Assembly (NCBI GenBank): GCA_027484685.1
Contig: JAIXSO010000021.1
Span: 1-64,000 of the forward strand
Direction: 5' to 3'
From: Bacteroidota bacterium
Lineage (GTDB): Bacteria; Bacteroidota; Bacteroidia; UKL13-3
DNA length: 64,000 nucleotides
The notes under the pieces were generated by a model. The model did not search any database. It was given only the letters and a program-made list of their open reading frames with translations, and was not told the origin of the DNA. Below, one piece after another: positions 4,915 through 61,012 of the stretch. The position numbers and the translations under genes were made by a program. Each line of letters begins with the position of its first letter. The stretch's first letter is position 1.

Positions 4915-5709
4915 CTATTTTGATGTTATTTCAAAATTATCATCATCTAACCATACTGGAAATGCTTTTCGGTAAGTTTTTAGTTCGGGCAAATGTATGG
5001 TAAAAGTGGTTTCAAACTCTTCGTGAGTTAATTCATTTAATAATTTTCCTTGTGGGTTGTATAATGCTGATTGTCCGTTATAGTTTACTTGGTTTCCATC
5101 TTCGCCAACTCTGTTTACAGTGGCTATATAGCATTGGTTTTCAATGGCTCTAGCTTGGTTAAGCACTTGCCAATGAGTAATGCGTTTTTCAGGCCAACTT
5201 GCTACCACTAGCATTAAATCGTAGTCAAACGTTTCGGTACGTTTAAGCCAAATAGGAAACCTCAAATCGTAACATACAAATGGGGCTATTTTCCAACCTT
5301 TAAAATCAATTACAATTCTGCTAGTTCCAGCTGTATAATGTTTGTTCTCTTCACCCATTCTAAATAAATGAGCTTTATCGTAAAACTGAACATTTCCGTT
5401 AGGTTCCACAAATAAAAATCTATTATAGAATTGGTTATTTTCACTAATAATGAGGCTACCACAAACAGCAGCATTTTTAACCAAAGCCACTTCCTTCATC
5501 CAATTTACAGTAAAACCATCCATTGGTTCGGCTAGTTTGGCACTATTCATGGTAAAACCAGTAGAAAACATTTCAGGCAACACAATTAAGTCAGTTGGCT
5601 CTGAAATTTCGAAAATTCTATTGGTAAATTGTTGAATATTGGTTCGTTTGTCTTCCCAAAAAAGATTGCTTTGAATAAGTGTAATTCTTAACGAGTCGGC
5701 TGTAGACAT
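4915..5709 (-). CDS. Omega-amidase (nitrilase superfamily, YafV-like)
   Basis: This 264-residue cytoplasmic nitrilase-superfamily hydrolase has all three catalytic residues: Glu46 in VLPEMFSTGF, Lys112 in YDKAHLFRMGE and Cys146 in PFVCYDLRFPIW. The CYDLRFP context is typical of omega-amidases, which hydrolyse alpha-ketoglutaramate and alpha-ketosuccinamate to the oxo-diacid and ammonia. The aminotransferase gene lies 24 bases upstream on the same strand. This fits the known coupling of a glutamine/methionine transaminase with an omega-amidase, which makes transamination irreversible. Substrate choice is inferred from family and neighbour. Confidence 0.88.
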   Translation of the reverse strand: MSTADSLRITLIQSNLFWEDKRTNIQQFTNRIFEISEPTDLIVLPEMFSTGFTMNSAKLAEPMDGFTVNWMKEVALVKNAAVCGSLIISENNQFYNRFLFVEPNGNVQFYDKAHLFRMGEENKHYTAGTSRIVIDFKGWKIAPFVCYDLRFPIWLKRTETFDYDLMLVVASWPEKRITHWQVLNQARAIENQCYIATVNRVGEDGNQVNYNGQSALYNPQGKLLNELTHEEFETTFTIHLPELKTYRKAFPVWLDDDNFEITSK

Positions 5710-5733
5710 TTTGGGTTATTTTAAATGGTTAAC

Positions 5734-15024: not shown

Positions 15025-15540
15025 ATGCTAAAATATGTAATCTTATGTATCTGTTGTATTGGTTTTATGTCTGCCAATGCTCAACAAGTAATAACTTTTT
15101 TTACCAATAAAAAGCAGACGGAAACTATTGAATATACTTTACCTCATAAAGTAACTTGTAAAACCAATGAAGGTAAAAGATTACAGTTGATACTTGAAAA
15201 GGTTAATAACGATTCTTTTTATTTTTCGAGTTTGCAAAATTCTGATATGAAATACACAATACATTATCATGATTTGAAGTTTATTAAGTTTTATAAAAAG
15301 GGAGAAGTACCTTTAAAAGTTGGCCAATATTCATTTATAGTAATTGGTACATACTTTACTGCGTTCTCTGGATTCCTTATTACTCGTTCATTTATTATTA
15401 CTGAATGGGCTAAATTAAATAGAGAAGTTGGTTTGGCTTTGTTACTTCCTGCATCTTTAAGTTTTATTATTTCAACAAGTTTCAATAATAGCTTACCTCC
15501 TAAATTCAAATTTGCTAAAAATAAATATATTGTAAAATGA
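15025..15540 (+). CDS. Hypothetical exported membrane protein
   Basis: From the ATG at 15025 the 171-residue product begins MLKYVILCICCIGFMSANAQ, a good signal peptide; the ATG at 15004 would put seven extra residues in front of it. The mature N-terminus (about residues 19-85) contains FFTNKKQTETIEYTLPHKVT, which is repeated in the next, truncated gene. Two hydrophobic segments follow at about 101-120 (FIVIGTYFTAFSGFLITRSF) and 130-150 (LALLLPASLSFIIST), so it may sit in the inner membrane. The TGA overlaps the next ATG (ATGATG), showing an operon. The family is not recognised. Confidence 0.6.
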   Translation: MLKYVILCICCIGFMSANAQQVITFFTNKKQTETIEYTLPHKVTCKTNEGKRLQLILEKVNNDSFYFSSLQNSDMKYTIHYHDLKFIKFYKKGEVPLKVGQYSFIVIGTYFTAFSGFLITRSFIITEWAKLNREVGLALLLPASLSFIISTSFNNSLPPKFKFAKNKYIVK

Positions 15541-15692
15541 TGAAATGGATCTTTTTAGTTTTAATAATGACAACTGCTTTTATCAATCTTAAGGCACAAC
15601 AAGAACTTTTATTTACCAATAAAAAAACTAAAAAAGAGGTTACTTATAAATTACCCGTTAAAGTATCTATAAAACTGCCAAATGGTGAGTAA
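15537..15692 (+). pseudogene. Truncated paralogue of the preceding gene
   Basis: A 51-codon frame starts MMKWIFLVLIMTTAFINLKA, a signal peptide. The next 25 residues, such as LLFTNKKTKKEVTYKLPVKV, match the start of the mature part of the preceding protein (FTNKK, then TLPHKV). It then stops with TAA at KLPNGE, exactly where the neighbour continues with another 110 residues. The downstream sequence contains no trace of the missing part that I can see. The 3' end was lost, and the DRT-like module begins within about 60 bases, so the break may be the boundary of that insertion. Confidence 0.7.
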
Positions 15693-15744
15693 CAATAAAA
15701 TTAAATGCCCAACTGAAATTCAATTAGGCACTTAATAAAAAAAA

Positions 15745-15862
15745 TAGTAAATCCCCGCTATTTCTTTATATGGACCTCTGTTACCGAGTGTTGCCTCTGC
15801 AAGTGTGTGAAAATAATCATCTTAAAATTAAAAAATGACTTTGGGGATTGGCATTGGCATTA
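15745..15862 (-). ncRNA. Candidate structured ncRNA of the two-RT defence module
   Basis: Directly downstream of the second RT on the same strand there is a foldable element. AAUCCCC (complement of 15843-15849) pairs with GGGGAUU (15750-15756), closing about 85 nt. Inside are a 9-bp hairpin AGUCAUUUU/AAGAUGAUU (15832-15840 with 15815-15823, two G-U pairs), a single-stranded CACACAC (15803-15809), and an immediately adjacent hairpin UUGC-AGAG-GCAA (15791-15802). The proposed CACACAC template position, between two hairpins and inside a closing stem, fits a template RNA for a DRT3-type RT. Exact ends are not known; no promoter is seen, and it could be processed from the RT mRNA. Confidence 0.65.
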
Positions 15863-15865
15863 TCT

Positions 15866-18004
15866 TTAAGAGTATACTTCTTGACTCTTTTTATTTTCTA
15901 ATTCTTTGACTAAATTAAATCGTTCCCATTTCGTAAACCAATATTTATGGGTCTTATGAAATTTGAATAATTTCTTTGCATCCAACTTTGATTTTGTTAT
16001 TTCTGAAGCTGTTTCTTCTTGTCTATACAAAAGTAATATTTTTTCTTTAAAATCATAATCAACAAAAGGACAAGCAAACAAATCTAGCATTAAATGAGAC
16101 ATTTCGGACGATTTACCTCTTTTTTCTTTTGGATAGGTTTCAATATGATTAAAAATATAAAGTAATAAAGCTGATTTTAGATTAGGGTATTTTTTCGAAT
16201 GACCCATATAAAATAAAGTAACAACAATTGAAAAATAATTCAAGGTTTCTTTTTTTATTGTTAAGATATTACCATCATAAAATGTATTCATGTATTTGGA
16301 AAGTAATTGCTCTGAAAGTAAATATTCTTTACCTAAATCTTTTAGTACAGTCAAAAGATAAAGAGATTCAACTTGAGCATATGGATCTAAAACATTTTTA
16401 TTTAAAACAAAACTAGATTCATCAAGTATTTTCTTAAAGATACGTTCTCTGCAATTTTTTGAGTAGATAAACTCATTTGTGCCTTTTTTCTTTTCTTTAT
16501 AAAATCGAATTATTTTAGAAAGAATATGACTTGTTTTAATTGTTGAATTAACTCTTGGAGAAACTGAATAAATAAAAAATACAAAATCAATAAATCCTTC
16601 AATATAAGAAGCTAAAGAATCTTCAATATTATTTACTTCTAAAGAATCTGATTTGATAAGTTCACCTTTGTCTTTCTTGTTTAAATATTCTTTAAAAACC
16701 TTTTCAAATGTTAAAAGATTACTTTCGATTTTGTTGTTTAAAACAGCTAAACTGTAATTCAAAACATCTTTATAATCAATTTGTGATTCTTTAATTATTA
16801 TCTTGTATTTTGTTGCTAAAGAGTTTGAATCTATAATAAAATTGAAGCGGTGATTTATCAGTGAGTTTTTATGTTTTTTATCTAACGAATTTAATTCAAT
16901 TATTTCTAACTTAGGCTGATAATTAAATAAATCAATAATTCTATTTTTTGCAATCGTGATTTCTGTTACTATTGGTTTGTTGTATGTTAAGGATTTAGAA
17001 TTGTTTATTGCGAGTTTGTATTGTTTCAATTCATGTTTTAGTAGCATCAAAATTTCATCTTTTAAGACTTCATTATCGCAAAATAAAAAATAATCATCAA
17101 CATATCTATAAAGTTCATAGTGAGTTTTTAAAAAGATCTTTTTTTCTTTAAGTTTTTCTTCAATGTTTTTATCTATCCTCTGTAAAATAATTTCAGCAAA
17201 AATCCTAGAAAACTCTGGCCCAATTAATATTCCATTTGTTTCTCCATAATTCGTATATTGAATAAAATTATCAAATATTCCAGCAAATGTTTTTTTAGAA
17301 ATATTTACGTTTTCTTTAACTGTTTCAATTCCTAAAACCGCCCAAACTATAGAATGGGTGTAAATACTATCAAAACATTTTGTGATGTCAAATTTATATA
17401 AATGATTAAACTTTTTTTCTGCTCTTTGATATCGATAATCTTCATAAAATCTGTATATGTTTGTATATTTACTGTATGAAAAAAACGTTTTAAGATTTTC
17501 ATATTCTTTTCCACTTAACTCTAAAAAATCAGTTGTTTCTCCTTTGTTTGACTGATGAAGTTGATCATTGAAAAAAGTAAATCGTGCGATATTATCTGGC
17601 TTTCTTATGCTGTAATTGCTAATTGAACAATAATATATAATCAACTCTTTAAATTTATCATAGAATTCAATAATTTTCAACTGATTCATTGGATGAATCA
17701 ATGAAAGTTCTCTAAAGTCATTCTTTTTATGACTAATGCGATAATTGAATGGTATTTTTCTGAAATTTGGATTTATTAGGTTAGTAGAAAATAGCATTTT
17801 TAAAAGAATTTCAAATGCATCTTTATTAGCTCCTATATATTTAGATTCGTAACTTATGTAACCATTTATAAGTTCAATTTTATTATCTATTAGAAAGCTA
17901 TAAAAATACCTATTAGAAAATGTTATTGGAACTTCGAAAGGAAGTACATCCGAAAGTATTGTTCTTTCTTTTGGATAATTAATATGTTTTTTCTTTTTAC
18001 TCAT
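15866..18004 (-). CDS. Defence reverse transcriptase, Drt3b/UG8-like
   Basis: From the ATG at 18004 this is a 712-residue reverse transcriptase with a large C-terminal region; the codons before it begin at a TTG at 18013. Motif A is KFDITKCFDSI with Asp206. Motif B-like sequence is TNGILIGPEFSRIFAEIIL (256-274). Motif C is YRYVDDYFLF with the catalytic YVDD at 301-304. The N-terminal 200 and C-terminal 290 residues are helix-rich and unlike group II intron or retron RTs. Its start is two bases after the stop of the first RT. A long second RT translated right after a shorter one is the DRT type 3 (UG3 plus UG8) arrangement. RT chemistry is certain; the subtype is inferred. Confidence 0.85.
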   Translation of the reverse strand: MSKKKKHINYPKERTILSDVLPFEVPITFSNRYFYSFLIDNKIELINGYISYESKYIGANKDAFEILLKMLFSTNLINPNFRKIPFNYRISHKKNDFRELSLIHPMNQLKIIEFYDKFKELIIYYCSISNYSIRKPDNIARFTFFNDQLHQSNKGETTDFLELSGKEYENLKTFFSYSKYTNIYRFYEDYRYQRAEKKFNHLYKFDITKCFDSIYTHSIVWAVLGIETVKENVNISKKTFAGIFDNFIQYTNYGETNGILIGPEFSRIFAEIILQRIDKNIEEKLKEKKIFLKTHYELYRYVDDYFLFCDNEVLKDEILMLLKHELKQYKLAINNSKSLTYNKPIVTEITIAKNRIIDLFNYQPKLEIIELNSLDKKHKNSLINHRFNFIIDSNSLATKYKIIIKESQIDYKDVLNYSLAVLNNKIESNLLTFEKVFKEYLNKKDKGELIKSDSLEVNNIEDSLASYIEGFIDFVFFIYSVSPRVNSTIKTSHILSKIIRFYKEKKKGTNEFIYSKNCRERIFKKILDESSFVLNKNVLDPYAQVESLYLLTVLKDLGKEYLLSEQLLSKYMNTFYDGNILTIKKETLNYFSIVVTLFYMGHSKKYPNLKSALLLYIFNHIETYPKEKRGKSSEMSHLMLDLFACPFVDYDFKEKILLLYRQEETASEITKSKLDAKKLFKFHKTHKYWFTKWERFNLVKELENKKSQEVYS

Positions 18005-18006
18005 AA

Positions 18007-19491
18007 CTACCAAATTGATTTAATTACTTCAAGCTTGCTTATGTTTTTTTTAAACTTTTTTGAGTAAAATTTTGCTTCTCTCTCATTAAAATTGATGGAG
18101 TAAAAATTTTGCTCCTTTTCTAAAAAGCCTTTTCTAAAACTAAAGTTGTTTTTTATATGAATAATTATATTTTTCTTTTTTATTCCATTAGTTGGAGGGC
18201 TTATTGTTTTAATTATATTCATTAGACTTTTATCAAGTTTTTTAAGGCTTTCGATTTCATTTGTATTTAGCTTTAACATTTCATTTGAATAATAAATTCC
18301 TGCCTTCACATTTCTTTTATTATTACTTAGGTGGAAATTACCAGTTAGAAATTTTAGTCTTGAATATAACATATTTCTTGCCTCTTTTTCATTATAAAAA
18401 GAATCCTTATTATAAGCTAATATTGAAAGATTCAGCCGTTTATTATACCGCTCAATTTTATTCGGTGAAATTTCTAGTTGAGAATTAAAGTTTATATTTT
18501 TTTCTCCAGAATTATAAGTTTCACTTCGCTCAATTTGAAACAAATAGCCCAAAAAACTAAATGATTCTTTATAAGTTGTTTTATTTAACAAGTCTATTTC
18601 GAAAGTCTTGTTTTCTTCACCGTCAGAACCATCCTTTAATTGTAAATTATTTTTATTACAAATTATAAGTTCTATTTCTTTTAAATAATCCCCTTTGGTA
18701 CTAAAAGTTTTGGGTGAACACACAACAACAATATCATCAACATATCTTGCATAAAAAACAACATCTTGGATAGATTTTATTTCATTATCAATATCCTTCA
18801 TAAATAATTCTGATAAAAAAGCGCTAAGACCAATTCCTCTTGGAATACCTTTTAAGGGTTCTATCACTTCAGTATCTTTTTTGTTTTCAAACTCATAAAA
18901 TAATTTTCTAATAAGTTTTTTTGAATGGGGAGTAATCAATGTATTGTTTTCAATTTTATTAAACAGTTTATCTTGTGGAATAGATTCATAAAATGATTTT
19001 ATATCAGTTTTTATTACAACTTTTGGGAATCCATCCGATATAATATTATAAAGTTGTTTAATTATGTTGTTTCTATTTGATTGAATTACTTTGAAAGTTT
19101 TATTTATATTGAATTGCAATTGTTTGATGGCATAATAAGATGCCGCATCATCTTTTTGTAATTTATAAACTTCTTTTTCTGAATCATATTCAATATTAAA
19201 TTCAAAGTTTTTTGAATTAATTGTTTCAGATAGTTTTTCAAAAATTTCAAACCTTAACTCTTCTTTTTCTTTATTGATTATGTCAAGACGTTCTGAAAAA
19301 GAATCAAGTTCAGCTTTGGTGAGAGTACCTTTAGCTTTTTTTAGTTCAATTTTTTCGGAAACAATTTTTTTAAAAGCACTATTTTTATCAAGGTACGCTT
19401 TATCAAAATGCGATTTATTGAAATTTCCTTTTCTATTTTCTTTTAGAAACAAAATATTGAAATTTTTACTTGAAAAAGATTGGTCTAACAT
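18007..19491 (-). CDS. Defence reverse transcriptase, Drt3a/UG3-like
   Basis: This 494-residue RT is the first gene of the two-RT operon. It has about 140 charged N-terminal residues, then finger/palm motifs: KTDIKSFYESI (161-171, Asp163), GIPRGIGLSAFLSELFM (215-231), and YARYVDDIVVV (247-257) with catalytic YVDD at 250-253. SFSFLGYLF (310-318) comes next, then a C-terminal thumb-like region. No maturase, endonuclease or integrase domain is present, so it is not a mobile group II intron. In DRT type 3 the shorter RT (UG3) pairs with a longer one (UG8), as here. The product probably copies the RNA encoded downstream. Codon use is extremely A/T-rich, consistent with transfer. Confidence 0.85.
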   Translation of the reverse strand: MLDQSFSSKNFNILFLKENRKGNFNKSHFDKAYLDKNSAFKKIVSEKIELKKAKGTLTKAELDSFSERLDIINKEKEELRFEIFEKLSETINSKNFEFNIEYDSEKEVYKLQKDDAASYYAIKQLQFNINKTFKVIQSNRNNIIKQLYNIISDGFPKVVIKTDIKSFYESIPQDKLFNKIENNTLITPHSKKLIRKLFYEFENKKDTEVIEPLKGIPRGIGLSAFLSELFMKDIDNEIKSIQDVVFYARYVDDIVVVCSPKTFSTKGDYLKEIELIICNKNNLQLKDGSDGEENKTFEIDLLNKTTYKESFSFLGYLFQIERSETYNSGEKNINFNSQLEISPNKIERYNKRLNLSILAYNKDSFYNEKEARNMLYSRLKFLTGNFHLSNNKRNVKAGIYYSNEMLKLNTNEIESLKKLDKSLMNIIKTISPPTNGIKKKNIIIHIKNNFSFRKGFLEKEQNFYSINFNEREAKFYSKKFKKNISKLEVIKSIW

Positions 19492-19643
19492 GTTGAAAAT
19501 ATAAATTGTATTATTACAACATTAGTAGATTAATTTAAATTTTTATAGTTTTATTGGATTTATTCAATTACTGACATTTTTATCTGTGAGATCTGTGGTT
19601 AATTTTTATACTAATATTTTGCAATTCGTATTTATTATTGCAC

Positions 19644-22600
19644 ATGGCACAAACTAAAATTCCATTTATAGATTTACTCAATCAATTAAATACCAAACAG
19701 CGCGAAGCTGTTGAACAAATTGATGGTCCAATGTTGGTTATAGCTGGTCCTGGAACTGGTAAAACACAAATATTAGCTACACGAATTGCCAATATTTTAA
19801 CCCAAACCGATACCACTGCCGAAAGTATTTTATGCTTAACTTATACCGATGCAGGCACCATTGCCATGCGTAAACGTTTGTTGGATATTATTGGAACCGA
19901 TGCTTATAGAATTGATATTTTTACCTTTCACGCTTTTAGTAATTCAGTTATTCAACAAAACTTAGATTATTTTGGAATACGAAGTTTGGATGCAGTAAGC
20001 GAGTTAGAGCAAATAAAAATTGTACATGAAATAATTGACAATTTTACTGCTGAAAATCCTTTAAAACGTTACACAGGCGATATTTACTACGAAACCAGTA
20101 GGTTACTTAATTTGTATCAAGCCATGAAACGCGAAAACTGGAATGCCACTTTAATTAGCAATAAAATTGATGCCTATTTAGAAGATATAAAAACCCGCGA
20201 AGAGTTTGTTTATAAGCGCAAATACAAAGAGTTTAACGCAGGTGATTTAAAACAAGCTGCTTACGATAAAGAAGTGCAAAAAATGCAGTCGTTAAGAGCT
20301 GCTGCTGTAACTTTTGACAGCTACCAAGAAAAGTTAAAGCAAACCAATAGATACGATTTTGCTGATATGATTCTTTGGGTGATTGAAGCCTTTAATCAAA
20401 AGCCTGATATGTTAGCGCAGTACCAAGAAAAATATTTATACTTTTTGGTAGATGAGTACCAAGATACAAGTGGAGCTCAAAATGATTTGTTGTTTCAACT
20501 ATTAAAAAATAACGATAAGCCCAATGTTTTTGCCGTTGGCGATGATGATCAATCTATTTACAGGTTTCAAGGCGCTAATATTGAAAACATCAATTTATAC
20601 ATCAATAAATACCACGATCAGGATTTAACTACCATTTCGTTAGAGCAAAATTACCGCAGTAGTCAAGTTATTTTAGATGCCAGTAAAGCCTTAATTGGGC
20701 AAAATACAAGCAGACTTAATAACGATAAAACTTTATTGGCTAGCAATGCTCAATTCGCGCATTTAGGCATTGCTCCGCAAATATATGCTTACCAAAATGA
20801 GGCACATCAAAGTACGCATATTGCTATGCAAATAGCAGAATTGCACAAACAAGGTGTTCCTTTAAATGAAATAGCAGTTTTATTTCATAACCATAAACAA
20901 GCCGAAGATTTAATTACATGGCTTCAACAAAATAATATCAATATCAATACTCGTAAACGTGCCAATGCTTTTGACGAAATGTTGGTTAAAAAAATGGTGA
21001 CCATTTTACGTTATTTAAATGCTGAATTGACTAGGCCGCACAGTGGCGAGTATCTTTTATTCGAAATTTTGCATTATCATTTTTTTAATTTACCAAGTAT
21101 TGAATTGGCTCGTTTTGCCAATAAAATGAACGATTTGAATAATAAAATAGATGTGGCTTGGGAAAAGGTTGGTTGGCGCGAAGCACTTAAACAAAACTTT
21201 GCCGAACCCAAACCAAGTATTTTTATTGTTGATGAAAAAGTAAATCAATTATTTGTAAATGCTTCGCAATTGATTGAAAAATGGATTAAAGATGCTACCA
21301 ATTTAACATTGCAGCATTTAATTAAAGAAATAATAAACGACAGCGGTTTATTGTTTGAAGCATTACAAAGCGAAGAAAGAACTTATAACATGCAGTTATT
21401 GCATACCTTTTTCGATTTTATAAAAAATGAATGTGCTCGCAATACCAAAACAGCATTGAGGCATTTAATTCAAACCATTGATACCATGGAGCAAGAAGGA
21501 ATTCAGCTGCCTTCGCAACGTTTAATTTATAATACCGATGGCGTTAATTTTATTACCACTCACTCTTCAAAAGGTTTAGAGTTTGAGCATGTTTTTATAA
21601 TTGGTTGTAATGCCAATGTTTGGGAAAAAGCCCGTAAACATAGCAGTTATATATTGCCCGATACTTTATTTGAAATAAATAAAGAAAGCGAAATTGAAGA
21701 AAAAAGAAGGTTGTTTTATGTAGGTATGACTCGTGCTAAAAAGCAATTATACATTAGTTATTTAACCCACGATAACAATAGCAAAGAGCTAGAAAAAAGC
21801 CAGTTTGTTGCTGAGTTAGAAGAATTTGCTAAACTAAAAACAAGTGATTATGCTGTCAACGATAATGATTTAACCCAATTTGAGTTAACAGTTTGGCAAA
21901 CTCAAAAACATTTACCTCAAAATACATTGTTTAATAATGATTTTGTAAATGAATTGCTTGAAAAATACACTTTGAGTGTAACACATTTAAGCTCATATTT
22001 AAAATGCCCAACAGCGTTTTATTTTAACAGTTTAATTAAAGTTCCTGCCCCTTTAAGTGCCAGTATGACCTTTGGTAGCGCGGTGCATTATGCTTTAGAA
22101 AAACTATTTAGAAACATGAATAGTAGCGATGAAAAAGCTTTTGCCTCAACCGAAGAAATGATCAAAGATTTTGCTTGGTTTATGCGTAGAAATGAGCAAA
22201 ATTTTACACCACAGGAGTTTAAATTACGAATGGAATATGGCGAACAATTTTTGCCAAAATATTATGATAAATACATCAACGATTGGAATAAAATTACCAG
22301 TGTAGAGCGTAGTTTAAAAAATGTGGTGGTGAACAATGTGCCATTAAACGGAAAGCTAGATAAGTTAGAGTTTGATGGAAATATTGTAAATGTGGTAGAC
22401 TATAAAACTGGAAGTGTAGATAATGCACGCGAAAAGTTTAAAACGCCTAATCTAGAAAATGTAGCAAAAGACGAAGCAGAGCAAAAAGAACCTAAGTTTG
22501 AAGATAAATTTGGAGGTGATTATTGGCGCCAAGCTGTATTTTATAAAATATTAATGGATTACGATAAAGACCCCAAAACACAAAAATGGGAAATGCGTAC

Positions 22601-22850
22601 TTGTGAGTTTGATTTTGTAGAACCAGATAAAAAAACAGGAGAATTTACCAAAGTAAGGGTTCCAATTTCACCAAATGATGTAAACGTAGTTTTAGGGCAA
22701 ATAGATTATGCCTACGCTAAAATTAAAGCCAAAGAATTTAGCAATGGTTGCGGCAAAGAAGATTGCCATTGGTGTGAGTTTACCAAAAATTATTATGCTA
22801 GCAATAATTTTAAAATTGAAATGGATAAAGTTGGCGAGGAGGAAGAGTAG
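19644..22850 (+). CDS. UvrD-family DNA helicase with C-terminal PD-(D/E)XK nuclease domain
   Basis: The ATG at 19644 (MAQTKIPFID) is preferred over a TTG two codons earlier. The roughly 1068-residue protein has superfamily 1 helicase motifs in order: GPGTGKTQ (Walker A, about residue 35), VDEYQDTSGAQ (motif II), GDDDQSIYRFQGA (III), LEQNYRSSQ (IV), TTHSSKGLEFEHVF (V) and RRLFYVGMTRAKKQLYIS (VI). The C-terminal part contains a RecB/AddB-like nuclease (VNVVDYKTGSVDN) and four cysteines in LKCPTAF and CGKEDCHWCEF that could hold an Fe-S cluster. It probably acts in double-strand-break repair. It is divergent from the RT module upstream and not part of it. Confidence 0.92.
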   Translation: MAQTKIPFIDLLNQLNTKQREAVEQIDGPMLVIAGPGTGKTQILATRIANILTQTDTTAESILCLTYTDAGTIAMRKRLLDIIGTDAYRIDIFTFHAFSNSVIQQNLDYFGIRSLDAVSELEQIKIVHEIIDNFTAENPLKRYTGDIYYETSRLLNLYQAMKRENWNATLISNKIDAYLEDIKTREEFVYKRKYKEFNAGDLKQAAYDKEVQKMQSLRAAAVTFDSYQEKLKQTNRYDFADMILWVIEAFNQKPDMLAQYQEKYLYFLVDEYQDTSGAQNDLLFQLLKNNDKPNVFAVGDDDQSIYRFQGANIENINLYINKYHDQDLTTISLEQNYRSSQVILDASKALIGQNTSRLNNDKTLLASNAQFAHLGIAPQIYAYQNEAHQSTHIAMQIAELHKQGVPLNEIAVLFHNHKQAEDLITWLQQNNININTRKRANAFDEMLVKKMVTILRYLNAELTRPHSGEYLLFEILHYHFFNLPSIELARFANKMNDLNNKIDVAWEKVGWREALKQNFAEPKPSIFIVDEKVNQLFVNASQLIEKWIKDATNLTLQHLIKEIINDSGLLFEALQSEERTYNMQLLHTFFDFIKNECARNTKTALRHLIQTIDTMEQEGIQLPSQRLIYNTDGVNFITTHSSKGLEFEHVFIIGCNANVWEKARKHSSYILPDTLFEINKESEIEEKRRLFYVGMTRAKKQLYISYLTHDNNSKELEKSQFVAELEEFAKLKTSDYAVNDNDLTQFELTVWQTQKHLPQNTLFNNDFVNELLEKYTLSVTHLSSYLKCPTAFYFNSLIKVPAPLSASMTFGSAVHYALEKLFRNMNSSDEKAFASTEEMIKDFAWFMRRNEQNFTPQEFKLRMEYGEQFLPKYYDKYINDWNKITSVERSLKNVVVNNVPLNGKLDKLEFDGNIVNVVDYKTGSVDNAREKFKTPNLENVAKDEAEQKEPKFEDKFGGDYWRQAVFYKILMDYDKDPKTQKWEMRTCEFDFVEPDKKTGEFTKVRVPISPNDVNVVLGQIDYAYAKIKAKEFSNGCGKEDCHWCEFTKNYYASNNFKIEMDKVGEEEE

Positions 22851-52388: not shown

Positions 52389-52636
52389 GGGCGTTCGAGC
52401 GGGCTATTCGTTCCAATCTTTTTTACCCAACCCAAAGCCTAGCACAAAAAAGGATTTCCACTGCTATCCCTAACGCGAAATTGGAGGGGAGTTAAAATTT
52501 AGAAGTTAAAGGTGGCCTTTTGCCGATGGTTGGAGTTTTCGCAGACTATTTTAGTAATCTTATAAAAGCAATAATTTCAAACAAAAAAACCAAGTCATGC
52601 TGCAAGCATTTCCTTGGCTTTAAATGATTGTTTTCA
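52389..52636. repeat. Dispersed 250-bp intergenic repeat, copy 1
   Basis: Starts GGGCGTTCGAGCGGGCTATT and ends near CTTGGCTTTAAATGATTG. It contains a nested hairpin, CCAAG...CTTGG enclosing ATGCT-GCA-AGCAT, which would also work as a terminator. Copy 2, about 88 percent identical by eye, is at 60763-61012. I know the GGGCGTTCGAGCGGGCTATT start as a widely repeated Bacteroidota intergenic element. It does not code for protein. Confidence 0.75.
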
Positions 52637-60763: not shown

Positions 60764-61012
60764 GGCGTTCGAGCGGGCTATTCGTTCCAATCTTTTTTAC
60801 CCAACCCAAAGCCTAACACAAAAAAAGGATTTCCACTGCTATCCCTAACGCGAATGGGAGGGGAGTTAAAATTTGGAAGTTAAAGGAGGTTTTTTCCCGA
60901 TTGTCGGAATTTTCACAAACTATTTTAGTAATCTAATTGAAAGCAATAATTTAAAACAAAAAAACAAGTCATGCTGCAAGCATCTCCTTGGCTTTAACTG
61001 ATTGTTTTTCAT
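60763..61012. repeat. Dispersed 250-bp intergenic repeat, copy 2
   Basis: Matches 52389-52636 from GGGCGTTCGAGCGGGCTATT to CTTGGCTTTAACTGATTG with about 88 percent identity by eye, in the same direction. It includes the nested hairpin ATGCT-GCA-AGCAT. Together with 60598-60763 it fills most of the 500-base gap after the broken gene. Confidence 0.75.

What the first reader, a model, noticed from the sequence alone, without database searches (positions are those of the whole stretch)
15745..15862. Structured RNA next to the RT operon with an exposed CACACAC between two hairpins
On the RT strand a 7-bp closing stem, a 9-bp hairpin, a free CACACAC and a 4-bp hairpin follow each other within 120 nt. 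My recollection of recent DRT3 work, unverified here, is that the first RT copies an ACACAC stretch of a system ncRNA into alternating GT DNA while the second RT makes the AC strand without a nucleic-acid template. If so, this element supplies that template and lies downstream of the second RT here. The sequence elements are directly visible; the function is inference.
Basis: partly seen in the sequence, partly recalled or inferred. Interest (0 to 1): 0.88.

Follow-up and report, generated by a model that had tools for sequence, protein, structure and literature searches.

The report
Pseudoknotted template RNA of DRT3 defence
Just after a pair of anti-phage reverse transcriptase genes lies the small RNA that one of the enzymes probably copies into a repeating DNA, and comparison with relatives indicates that this RNA is tied into a pseudoknot.

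Summary
The operon is DRT3 (Drt3a 18007-19491, Drt3b 15866-18013, minus strand) and the stretch after drt3b is its template RNA. A CA run of at least 6 nt follows the drt3b stop within 260 nt in 80 of 80 Drt3b loci taken from genome contigs, 79 within 100 nt; 1.2% of control stretches hold one. Drt3b keeps the published base-selecting (E27, R270) and priming (Y714) residues. The "7-bp closing stem" pairs, but its 3' strand lies in the loop of a further hairpin: a pseudoknot. The helix that closes the template loop (P1) starts 2 nt 3' of the template. In 41 non-redundant loci the pseudoknot helix averages -9.93 kcal/mol against -4.95 (sd 0.50) for permuted partners, 0 of 10,000 as good. Compact-RNA Drt3b proteins form one side of a fully supported branch; both solved DRT3 systems lie outside it. 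The mechanism is published for E. coli. A DRT3 RNA pseudoknot was not found in the papers searched; the primary Science paper could not be read. Verdict: new variant of a known kind.

The parts
18007..19491 (-). drt3a: RNA-templated reverse transcriptase of DRT3 (494 aa, TTG/ATG start as listed by the ORF tool)
   Evidence: PADLOC Drt3a 5.4e-100; Pfam RVT_1 2.5e-15; R249, V251, D252, D253 of the YVDD motif invariant in 5 aligned Drt3a
15866..18013 (-). drt3b: protein-primed, protein-templated reverse transcriptase of DRT3 (715 aa)
   Evidence: PADLOC Drt3b 3.4e-190; E27, R101, D209, F214, R270, Y304-D307, Y714 (numbering) correspond to published E22, R71, D182, F187, R241, YVDD, Y666
15738..15865 (-). 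DRT3 template RNA, P1 to P5; true 5' and 3' ends unknown
   Evidence: Comparative; covariance model R1 hit at 15738-15865, only good match in the genome (5.8e-22, next 0.45)
15851..15858 (-). P1 5' strand GCCAATGC (3 + 3 bp around a 2 x 2 internal loop)
   Evidence: Pairs GCC/GGC and TGC/GCA with P1b; changes on both sides at 2 of 6 pairs in ten aligned loci
15843..15849 (-).
   Evidence: Pairs with the P5 loop
15815..15840 (-). P2, 9-bp hairpin between PK and template (optional in the family)
   Evidence: no stable hairpin in this place in 20 of 76 loci with a PK helix
15803..15809 (-). Template CACACAC
   Evidence: CA/AC run of >=6 nt in 80 of 80 genome-contig loci
15793..15800 (-). P1 3' strand GCAGAGGC, 2 nt after the template
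   Evidence: cells paired 100% and 92.6% in its two halves
15776..15788 (-). P4, 3-bp hairpin CTC/GAG
   Evidence: 100% of cells paired, one pair changed on both sides
15738..15767 (-). P5, terminator-like hairpin AAAGAAATAG / CTATTTTTTT with loop CGGGGATTTA
   Evidence: 4 of 10 pairs with changes on both sides, 90.9% of cells paired; chosen blind to PK
15750..15756 (-).

Best explanation
It is the non-coding template RNA of a DRT3 anti-phage system. Shown here by comparison: the drt3a-drt3b-RNA layout; a conserved CA run; a helix (P1) that closes the template loop; a second helix (PK) between nucleotides just 3' of P1's 5' strand and the loop of a terminator-like hairpin (P5), which crosses P1 and P5 and so makes a pseudoknot; a Drt3b with the published gating and priming residues. 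Inferred from the E. coli systems: Drt3a binds this RNA and copies CACACAC again and again into poly(GT), slipping back by dinucleotides; Drt3b, primed on Y714 and with E27 and R270 selecting the base, makes poly(CA) with no nucleic-acid template; the strands pair into double-stranded DNA that leads to abortive infection when the host nuclease that removes it is blocked. Inferred here: P1 and PK (with P2 where present) present the template single-stranded and limit reading past its 5' end, and P5 also ends the transcript.
For: Drt3a and Drt3b by profile; key residues; published mechanism; CA run in 80 of 80 genome-contig loci against 405 of 33,128 control stretches; P1, P4, P5 compensatory changes in the window's clade, 7 of 19 pairs, reached by 0 of 500 shuffles; PK own against permuted partners in 81 loci and in 41 non-redundant loci; P1 own -11.03 against permuted -7.60, sd 0.28.
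Against: Single-sequence folding is not significant for the element. PK helix at -7 kcal/mol or better is missing in 7 of 41 non-redundant loci under the fixed rule, and 4 of 81 loci fall short of -6 in the free search. 68.7% of mismatched pairs also reach -6 in the free search, so single helices prove little and the case rests on the ensemble. The window itself has no P1 of 4 contiguous bp and is not in the test. Model R1 recognises few loci outside its training set. No Rfam family. No expression data; promoter-like matches are no more frequent than in shuffles.
Confidence: 0.88

Rival explanations
1. A DRT3 template RNA: the 7-bp helix is an ordinary outer closing stem, P5 and P1 do not form, and there is no pseudoknot.
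For: The pseudoknot-free minimum-energy fold contains that helix and not P1 or P5. In E. coli F404 (L095) a plain outer stem GTTAAAAGG/CCTTTTAAC can be read and the terminator is separate.
Against: P1 and P5 have compensatory changes of their own in the clade, P1 has them across 81 loci, and the PK partner was sought only inside the loop of a hairpin chosen blind to it.
Confidence: 0.07
2. PK and P5 (or P1) are alternatives of a switch: PK formation melts the terminator hairpin, so the RNA controls its own 3' end or the operon's read-through and does not hold a static pseudoknot.
For: PK uses the terminator loop in the loci listed; P5 is followed by a T run in many of them.
Against: PK pairs loop nucleotides only and leaves the P5 stem free, so the two need not exclude each other (sequence reading); P1, PK and P5 are kept together.
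Confidence: 0.1
3. Merely the 3' untranslated end and terminator of the RT operon; the CA run is a coincidence.
For: No expression data; no Rfam family here.
Against: 80 of 80 loci keep the CA run against 1.2% of control stretches, in line with the published template.
Confidence: 0.02
4. The locus is a true DRT3 RNA by descent but the system is silent or unable to work in this host.
For: None of the 9 other genomes of the genus that were searched has a Drt3b match, so it is a recent accessory insertion.
Against: Both genes are open with intact catalytic, gating and priming residues, and the RNA keeps template, P1, PK and P5.
Confidence: 0.08

Closest known systems
EcoDRT3 of preprint PMC13174585 (Drt3b matches PDB 26cz; E. 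coli F404 locus L095 used here as relative)
   Same: Drt3a + Drt3b + RNA downstream of drt3b; ACACAC template; E22/R241/Y666 equivalents
   Different: In L095 the template lies 129 nt after drt3b behind several hairpins, the outer stem is plain, and the terminator loop has 4 nt, too small for the PK helix seen here; Drt3b falls outside the compact branch
DRT3 system of Deng et al. 2026, Science (not held); Drt3a/Drt3b of PDB 9z6y, 9z6z taken to be it because its Drt3b has E at 26, the residue a review cites
   Same: Same two enzymes; reviews describe a 6:6:6 complex with ncRNA and an ACACAC template
   Different: Drt3b groups with long-RNA systems and outside the compact branch in a quick tree; its RNA could not be seen here
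DRT10 (PMC12632851, passages)
   Same: RNA-templated tandem-repeat synthesis; template just 3' of a stem-loop
   Different: One RT with a SLATT gene, variable A-B-A' template; here two RTs and a CA template
DRT2 ncRNA (PMC12596737, passages)
   Same: Structured RNA with a pseudoknot (5 Watson-Crick pairs) bound by a defence RT
   Different: Other RT family, other product, other template; no homology tested
Telomerase RNA (as described in PMC12632851)
   Same: Short repeat template whose 5' end is set by a stem-loop or pseudoknot
   Different: Likeness of design only; no homology tested or claimed

Membership tests
DRT3 | Adjacent Drt3a (UG3) and Drt3b (UG8) reverse transcriptases | tested here: met
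   PADLOC 5.4e-100 and 3.4e-190; genes overlap by 7 bases
DRT3 | Intact catalytic YVDD in both | tested here: met
DRT3 | Drt3b base-selecting E22 and R241 and C-terminal priming Tyr (Y666) | tested here: met
   E27, R270, Y714; across 92 Drt3b: E 91 and D 1, R 92, Tyr among the last four residues 92
DRT3 | Structured ncRNA downstream of drt3b with ACACAC in a loop next to a stem-loop | tested here: met
   Sequence and covariation only; expression not testable
DRT3 | Same RNA fold as EcoDRT3 (published covariance model; not taken here as defining the system) | tested here: inconclusive
   The published model was not available; compared by reading with L095 only
DRT3 | Poly(GT) and poly(AC) synthesis; phage defence | not testable with these tools
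   Needs bench work
DRT9 / DRT10 template RNAs | Poly-U template (DRT9), or A-B-A' template with a SLATT gene (DRT10) | tested here: not met
   Template is CACACAC and the enzymes match Drt3a/Drt3b; family features from passages; neighbours were looked at in the ORF list and, for two of them, by Pfam

The most novel reading that the evidence does not exclude
DRT3 has two RNA architectures. In the compact one (Bacteroidota, Pseudomonadota, Nitrospirota and probably others) the template RNA is a conserved pseudoknot in which the loop of the transcript's own terminator-like hairpin pairs beside the template-closing stem. The pseudoknot sets the 5' template boundary, and does so alone where the usual stem-loop is missing (no stable hairpin between PK and template in 20 of 76 loci): a telomerase-RNA-like design that couples the end of transcription to assembly of the active complex.
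Probability: 0.4. Interest if true: 0.75.

Novelty: new variant of a known kind. Interest (0 to 1): 0.6.

Why it matters
DRT3 is the system in which one DNA strand is templated by RNA and the other by a protein. In the papers I could read, its RNA is described from E. coli only. This locus leads to a compact class in which template, closing stem and pseudoknot fit into about 130 nt. That offers a small RNA for reconstitution and structures, a direct test of what fixes the template boundary, and a rule (CA run plus P1 plus PK after drt3b) for finding such RNAs. That the CA run is kept in all 80 loci examined suggests that the GT/AC product is general in this part of the DRT3 family and no peculiarity of E. 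coli.

Tried and rejected
Single-sequence folding is not significant for the element, so the case rests on comparison. Rfam: no family here at gathering scores; at E up to 1 three chance-level rows. Viral contigs: no stretch matched the patterns. Phage records: 9 with a match, none covering 80% of Drt3b. Alignment A3 misaligned L015 and the P5 ends of L012-L014, and A5 is out of register for PK (seen), so PK was tested by free helix search with permuted partners and not by column counts. A first hairpin pick chose the wrong hairpin for the window and L055; the zone was then limited to 15-95 nt after the template, still blind to PK. Promoter scan no better than shuffles. The helicase-nuclease gene beside the operon suggested a link to the published RecBCD guard model; it is present in 10 of 10 genomes of the genus, so adjacency says little. 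Orders: of 64 genomes of the order, only the window's own has a full-length Drt3b; one other has a distant RT hit.

Rows dropped before counts. From the 94-locus table the 81-locus set leaves out eight with the template more than 90 nt after the stop (L007, L018, L091, L095-L099), L088, L089 and L094 as near-copies of L020, L035 and L083, and L038 and L040 for lack of a hairpin under the rule. Not in the table: L002, L003 (distant RT hits), L001, L090 (the window itself), L005 (frame-broken copy like L094), L093 (IS1 beside drt3b). 8 of 81 loci, the window among them, had no P1 of 4 contiguous bp within 3 nt of the template and are not in the test. The 80 genome-contig loci are the best 80 of 305 relatives, so distant DRT3 are under-represented; further distant ones were seen only as L007, L091, L095-L099, L118 and L122. 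Tree 81 used 40 of the 92 Drt3b; L018 counts there as compact by its protein although its template is 130 nt from the stop. In the 20 loci without P2 some PK helices may be mis-assigned (L061, L064, L072, L086 are doubtful).

Full report
What is there. On the minus strand two overlapping genes, 18007-19491 and 15866-18013, match the PADLOC models of Drt3a (5.4e-100) and Drt3b (3.4e-190), and both carry a reverse transcriptase domain. CACACAC is at 15809-15803; no other copy of that 7-mer lies on either strand of the window.

What is known of such systems. Of the preprint PMC13174585 I read the abstract, the first two of three parts of the Results, the Discussion, one methods section and passages, among them the covariance-model methods; of two reviews I saw passages. 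The Science paper of Deng et al. is not held. The preprint reports a ncRNA downstream of DRT3b with a conserved ACACAC in a loop; DRT3a copies it into poly(dTdG); DRT3b, primed on Y666 and steered by E22 and R241, makes poly(dCdA); the two form double-stranded DNA, which RecBCD keeps in check.

Does this locus fit? In an alignment of 92 Drt3b proteins the E22 column is E in 91 and D in 1, the R241 column R in 92, both aspartates of YVDD D in 92, and a Tyr is among the last four residues in 92. In the window these are E27, R270, D306-D307 and Y714 (numbering). The numbering was anchored on E. coli F404 (L095), whose 667-aa Drt3b has the published residues at the published places and matches the 26cz chain over all 667 residues.

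Is the CA run conserved? A scan of genome contigs gave 305 relatives, of which the best 80 were kept. All 80 have a CA/AC run of at least 6 nt within 260 nt of the drt3b stop, 79 of them within 100 nt; of random 100-nt stretches of the fetched loci, 405 of 33,128 (1.2%) have one. With the window, L004 and L006 added (83 loci) the run lengths are 6 (4 loci), 7 (23), 8 (43), 9 (9) and 10 (4).

What is the fold? Reading the loci side by side showed two things that a pseudoknot-free fold cannot draw together. First, 0 to 2 nt after the template in many loci begins a strand that pairs with sequence near the drt3b stop: P1, with quite different letters in different loci (AGGACGC/GCGTTCT, GCATAGGGT/ACCCTATGT, GGTGCAGTGC/GTGCTGCACT). 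Second, nucleotides just 3' of P1's 5' strand pair with the loop of a terminator-like hairpin (P5) further down: PK (CGCTCA/TGAGCG, CTGAC/GTCAG, CAAATCAC/GTGATTTG). PK crosses P1 and P5, so this is a pseudoknot.

Controls for PK. P5 was chosen without reference to PK; then the best helix between a locus's 5' region and its own loop was compared with the loops of other loci. 81 compact loci, duplex energy: own -8.57, permuted -5.28, sd 0.19, best of 2,000 permutations -6.01. Contiguous helix: own -11.09, permuted -7.12, sd 0.27, best of 5,000 -8.16. At -8 kcal/mol or better: 73 of 81 own pairs, 35.0% of mismatched ones; at -6: 77 of 81 and 68.7%, so a single helix proves little and the ensemble is the evidence. 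With PK sought only in the 15 nt after P1 and one locus per 60%-identity Drt3b cluster (41 of 43 clusters; 2 without a P1 under the rule): own -9.93, permuted -4.95, sd 0.50, 0 of 10,000 as good; at -7 or better 34 of 41 own, 30.3% of mismatched. The seven that fail are L006, L016, L031, L039, L050, L064 and L085. For L016 I see by eye another hairpin with a fitting loop, and for L031 and L085 the free search does find a helix (-9.7, -13.0); these are readings after the fact. P1 by the same kind of test: own -11.03, permuted -7.60, sd 0.28.

The window's own clade. The window and nine close loci (best segments 55-74% identical in Drt3b) were aligned (A5). P1, P4 and P5 have 19 pairs, 94.0% of cells paired, 7 pairs with changes on both sides (13 cells), reached by 0 of 500 shuffles; sliding the partners by 1-3 columns drops pairing to 39.8-57.2%. 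PK in these ten is AATCCCC/GGGGATT (window), ATCCCC/GGGGAT (L008), AATCTCCA/TGGAGATT (L009, L010), AATCTTC/GGAGATT (L011), ATCTCC/GGAGAT (L012-L014) and AATCCTC/GAGGATT (L015, L055): two positions change in step. A covariance model without PK (R1) finds in 777 kb its ten training rows and twelve other matches at E up to 1: ten at the expected place (best 0.0042) and two on the opposite strand. In the window's genome the locus scores 5.8e-22, the next match 0.45. The sequence evolves fast; layout and pairing hold the class together.

Relation to the described systems. In a tree of 40 Drt3b the 33 from compact-RNA systems are one side of a branch with 100/100 support, in 100% of 200 bootstrap trees; several rows outside are on long branches. 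A quick tree of 23 rows with the 9z6y Drt3b puts that protein with long-RNA systems, outside the compact branch (SH-aLRT 100). In L095 the template is 129 nt after drt3b, an outer stem GTTAAAAGG/CCTTTTAAC can be read, and the terminator has a 4-nt loop. I did not establish whether other long-type RNAs have a pseudoknot. The preprint's covariance model came from relatives of EcoDRT3 (32 unique hits in the methods, 41 systems in the legend), and a search of its main text found no mention of a pseudoknot. Papers holding DRT3 and pseudoknot: 2, on DRT2 and DRT10; defence-associated RT and pseudoknot: 3, of which the DRT1 paper means protein knots. The 9z6y RNA and the Science paper were not seen, so priority for the pseudoknot is open.

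How it most likely works. Drt3a reads the template 3' to 5', makes GTGTGT, slips back and repeats. Something must keep it from running into the RNA 5' of the template; the preprint reports that run-through into the neighbouring stem-loop goes with truncated products. In 56 of 76 loci with a PK helix a hairpin (P2) can form between PK and template; in 20 no stable hairpin does, and in 16 of these PK ends 5-10 nt from the template (four assignments doubtful). I therefore infer that PK beside P1 is boundary or scaffold, and that P5 also ends the transcript. Six or seven pairs in a loop of 7-10 nt is within what kissing loops do (general knowledge). None of this is tested at the bench.

Place in the genome. 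None of the nine other genomes of the genus that were searched has a Drt3b match. In one of them, G044, both flanks are kept (window 15064-15540 and 19632-19759) and 1.5 kb with three small ORFs stands where the window has 4.1 kb with DRT3. The operon with its RNA looks like an accessory insertion at a variable site.

Noticed in passing
window 19638-22850 (+): UvrD-type helicase fused to a PD-(D/E)XK nuclease (1070 aa) lies divergent from the DRT3 operon. Published DRT3 is restrained by RecBCD; but the gene is in 10 of 10 genomes of the genus, so the adjacency may mean nothing.
   Followed up: partly
window 15540-19632; L112 4957-6473: Variable site: DRT3 in the window, three small ORFs of a secreted-protein-like family in G044, with both flanks kept.
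   Followed up: partly
window 52393-52481 and 60767-60856 (-): Two Flavo-1 RNAs (RF01705), function unknown.
   Followed up: no
window 15736-15700 (-): Strong 17-bp hairpin with T tail just after the RNA, between convergent genes; probably a terminator of its own.
   Followed up: no
L093 5463-6400 (E. coli MS 145-7): An IS1 transposase gene begins 18 nt after drt3b; the template segment of the E. coli RNA is found about 900 nt after the stop, so the RNA may be cut off from the operon.
   Followed up: partly
L064, L079, L086, L092: A Bacteroidales subgroup whose CA run is conserved (33 nt after the stop) but for which the P1/PK rules give no convincing helices.
   Followed up: no
G000:C23:53754-54149 (L002): A second, distant reverse transcriptase in the window's genome (35% over residues 206-349 of Drt3b, 510-aa open frame).
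   Followed up: no
L096 (Vibrio coralliilyticus plasmid): The one Drt3b of 92 with D in the E22 column still has an ACACACAC run 157 nt after its stop.
   Followed up: no
L122 (E. coli A287) 5401-5730: Long-type RNA with ACACAC 236 nt after drt3b, followed by a short tandem repeat CCCATGCTT.
   Followed up: no
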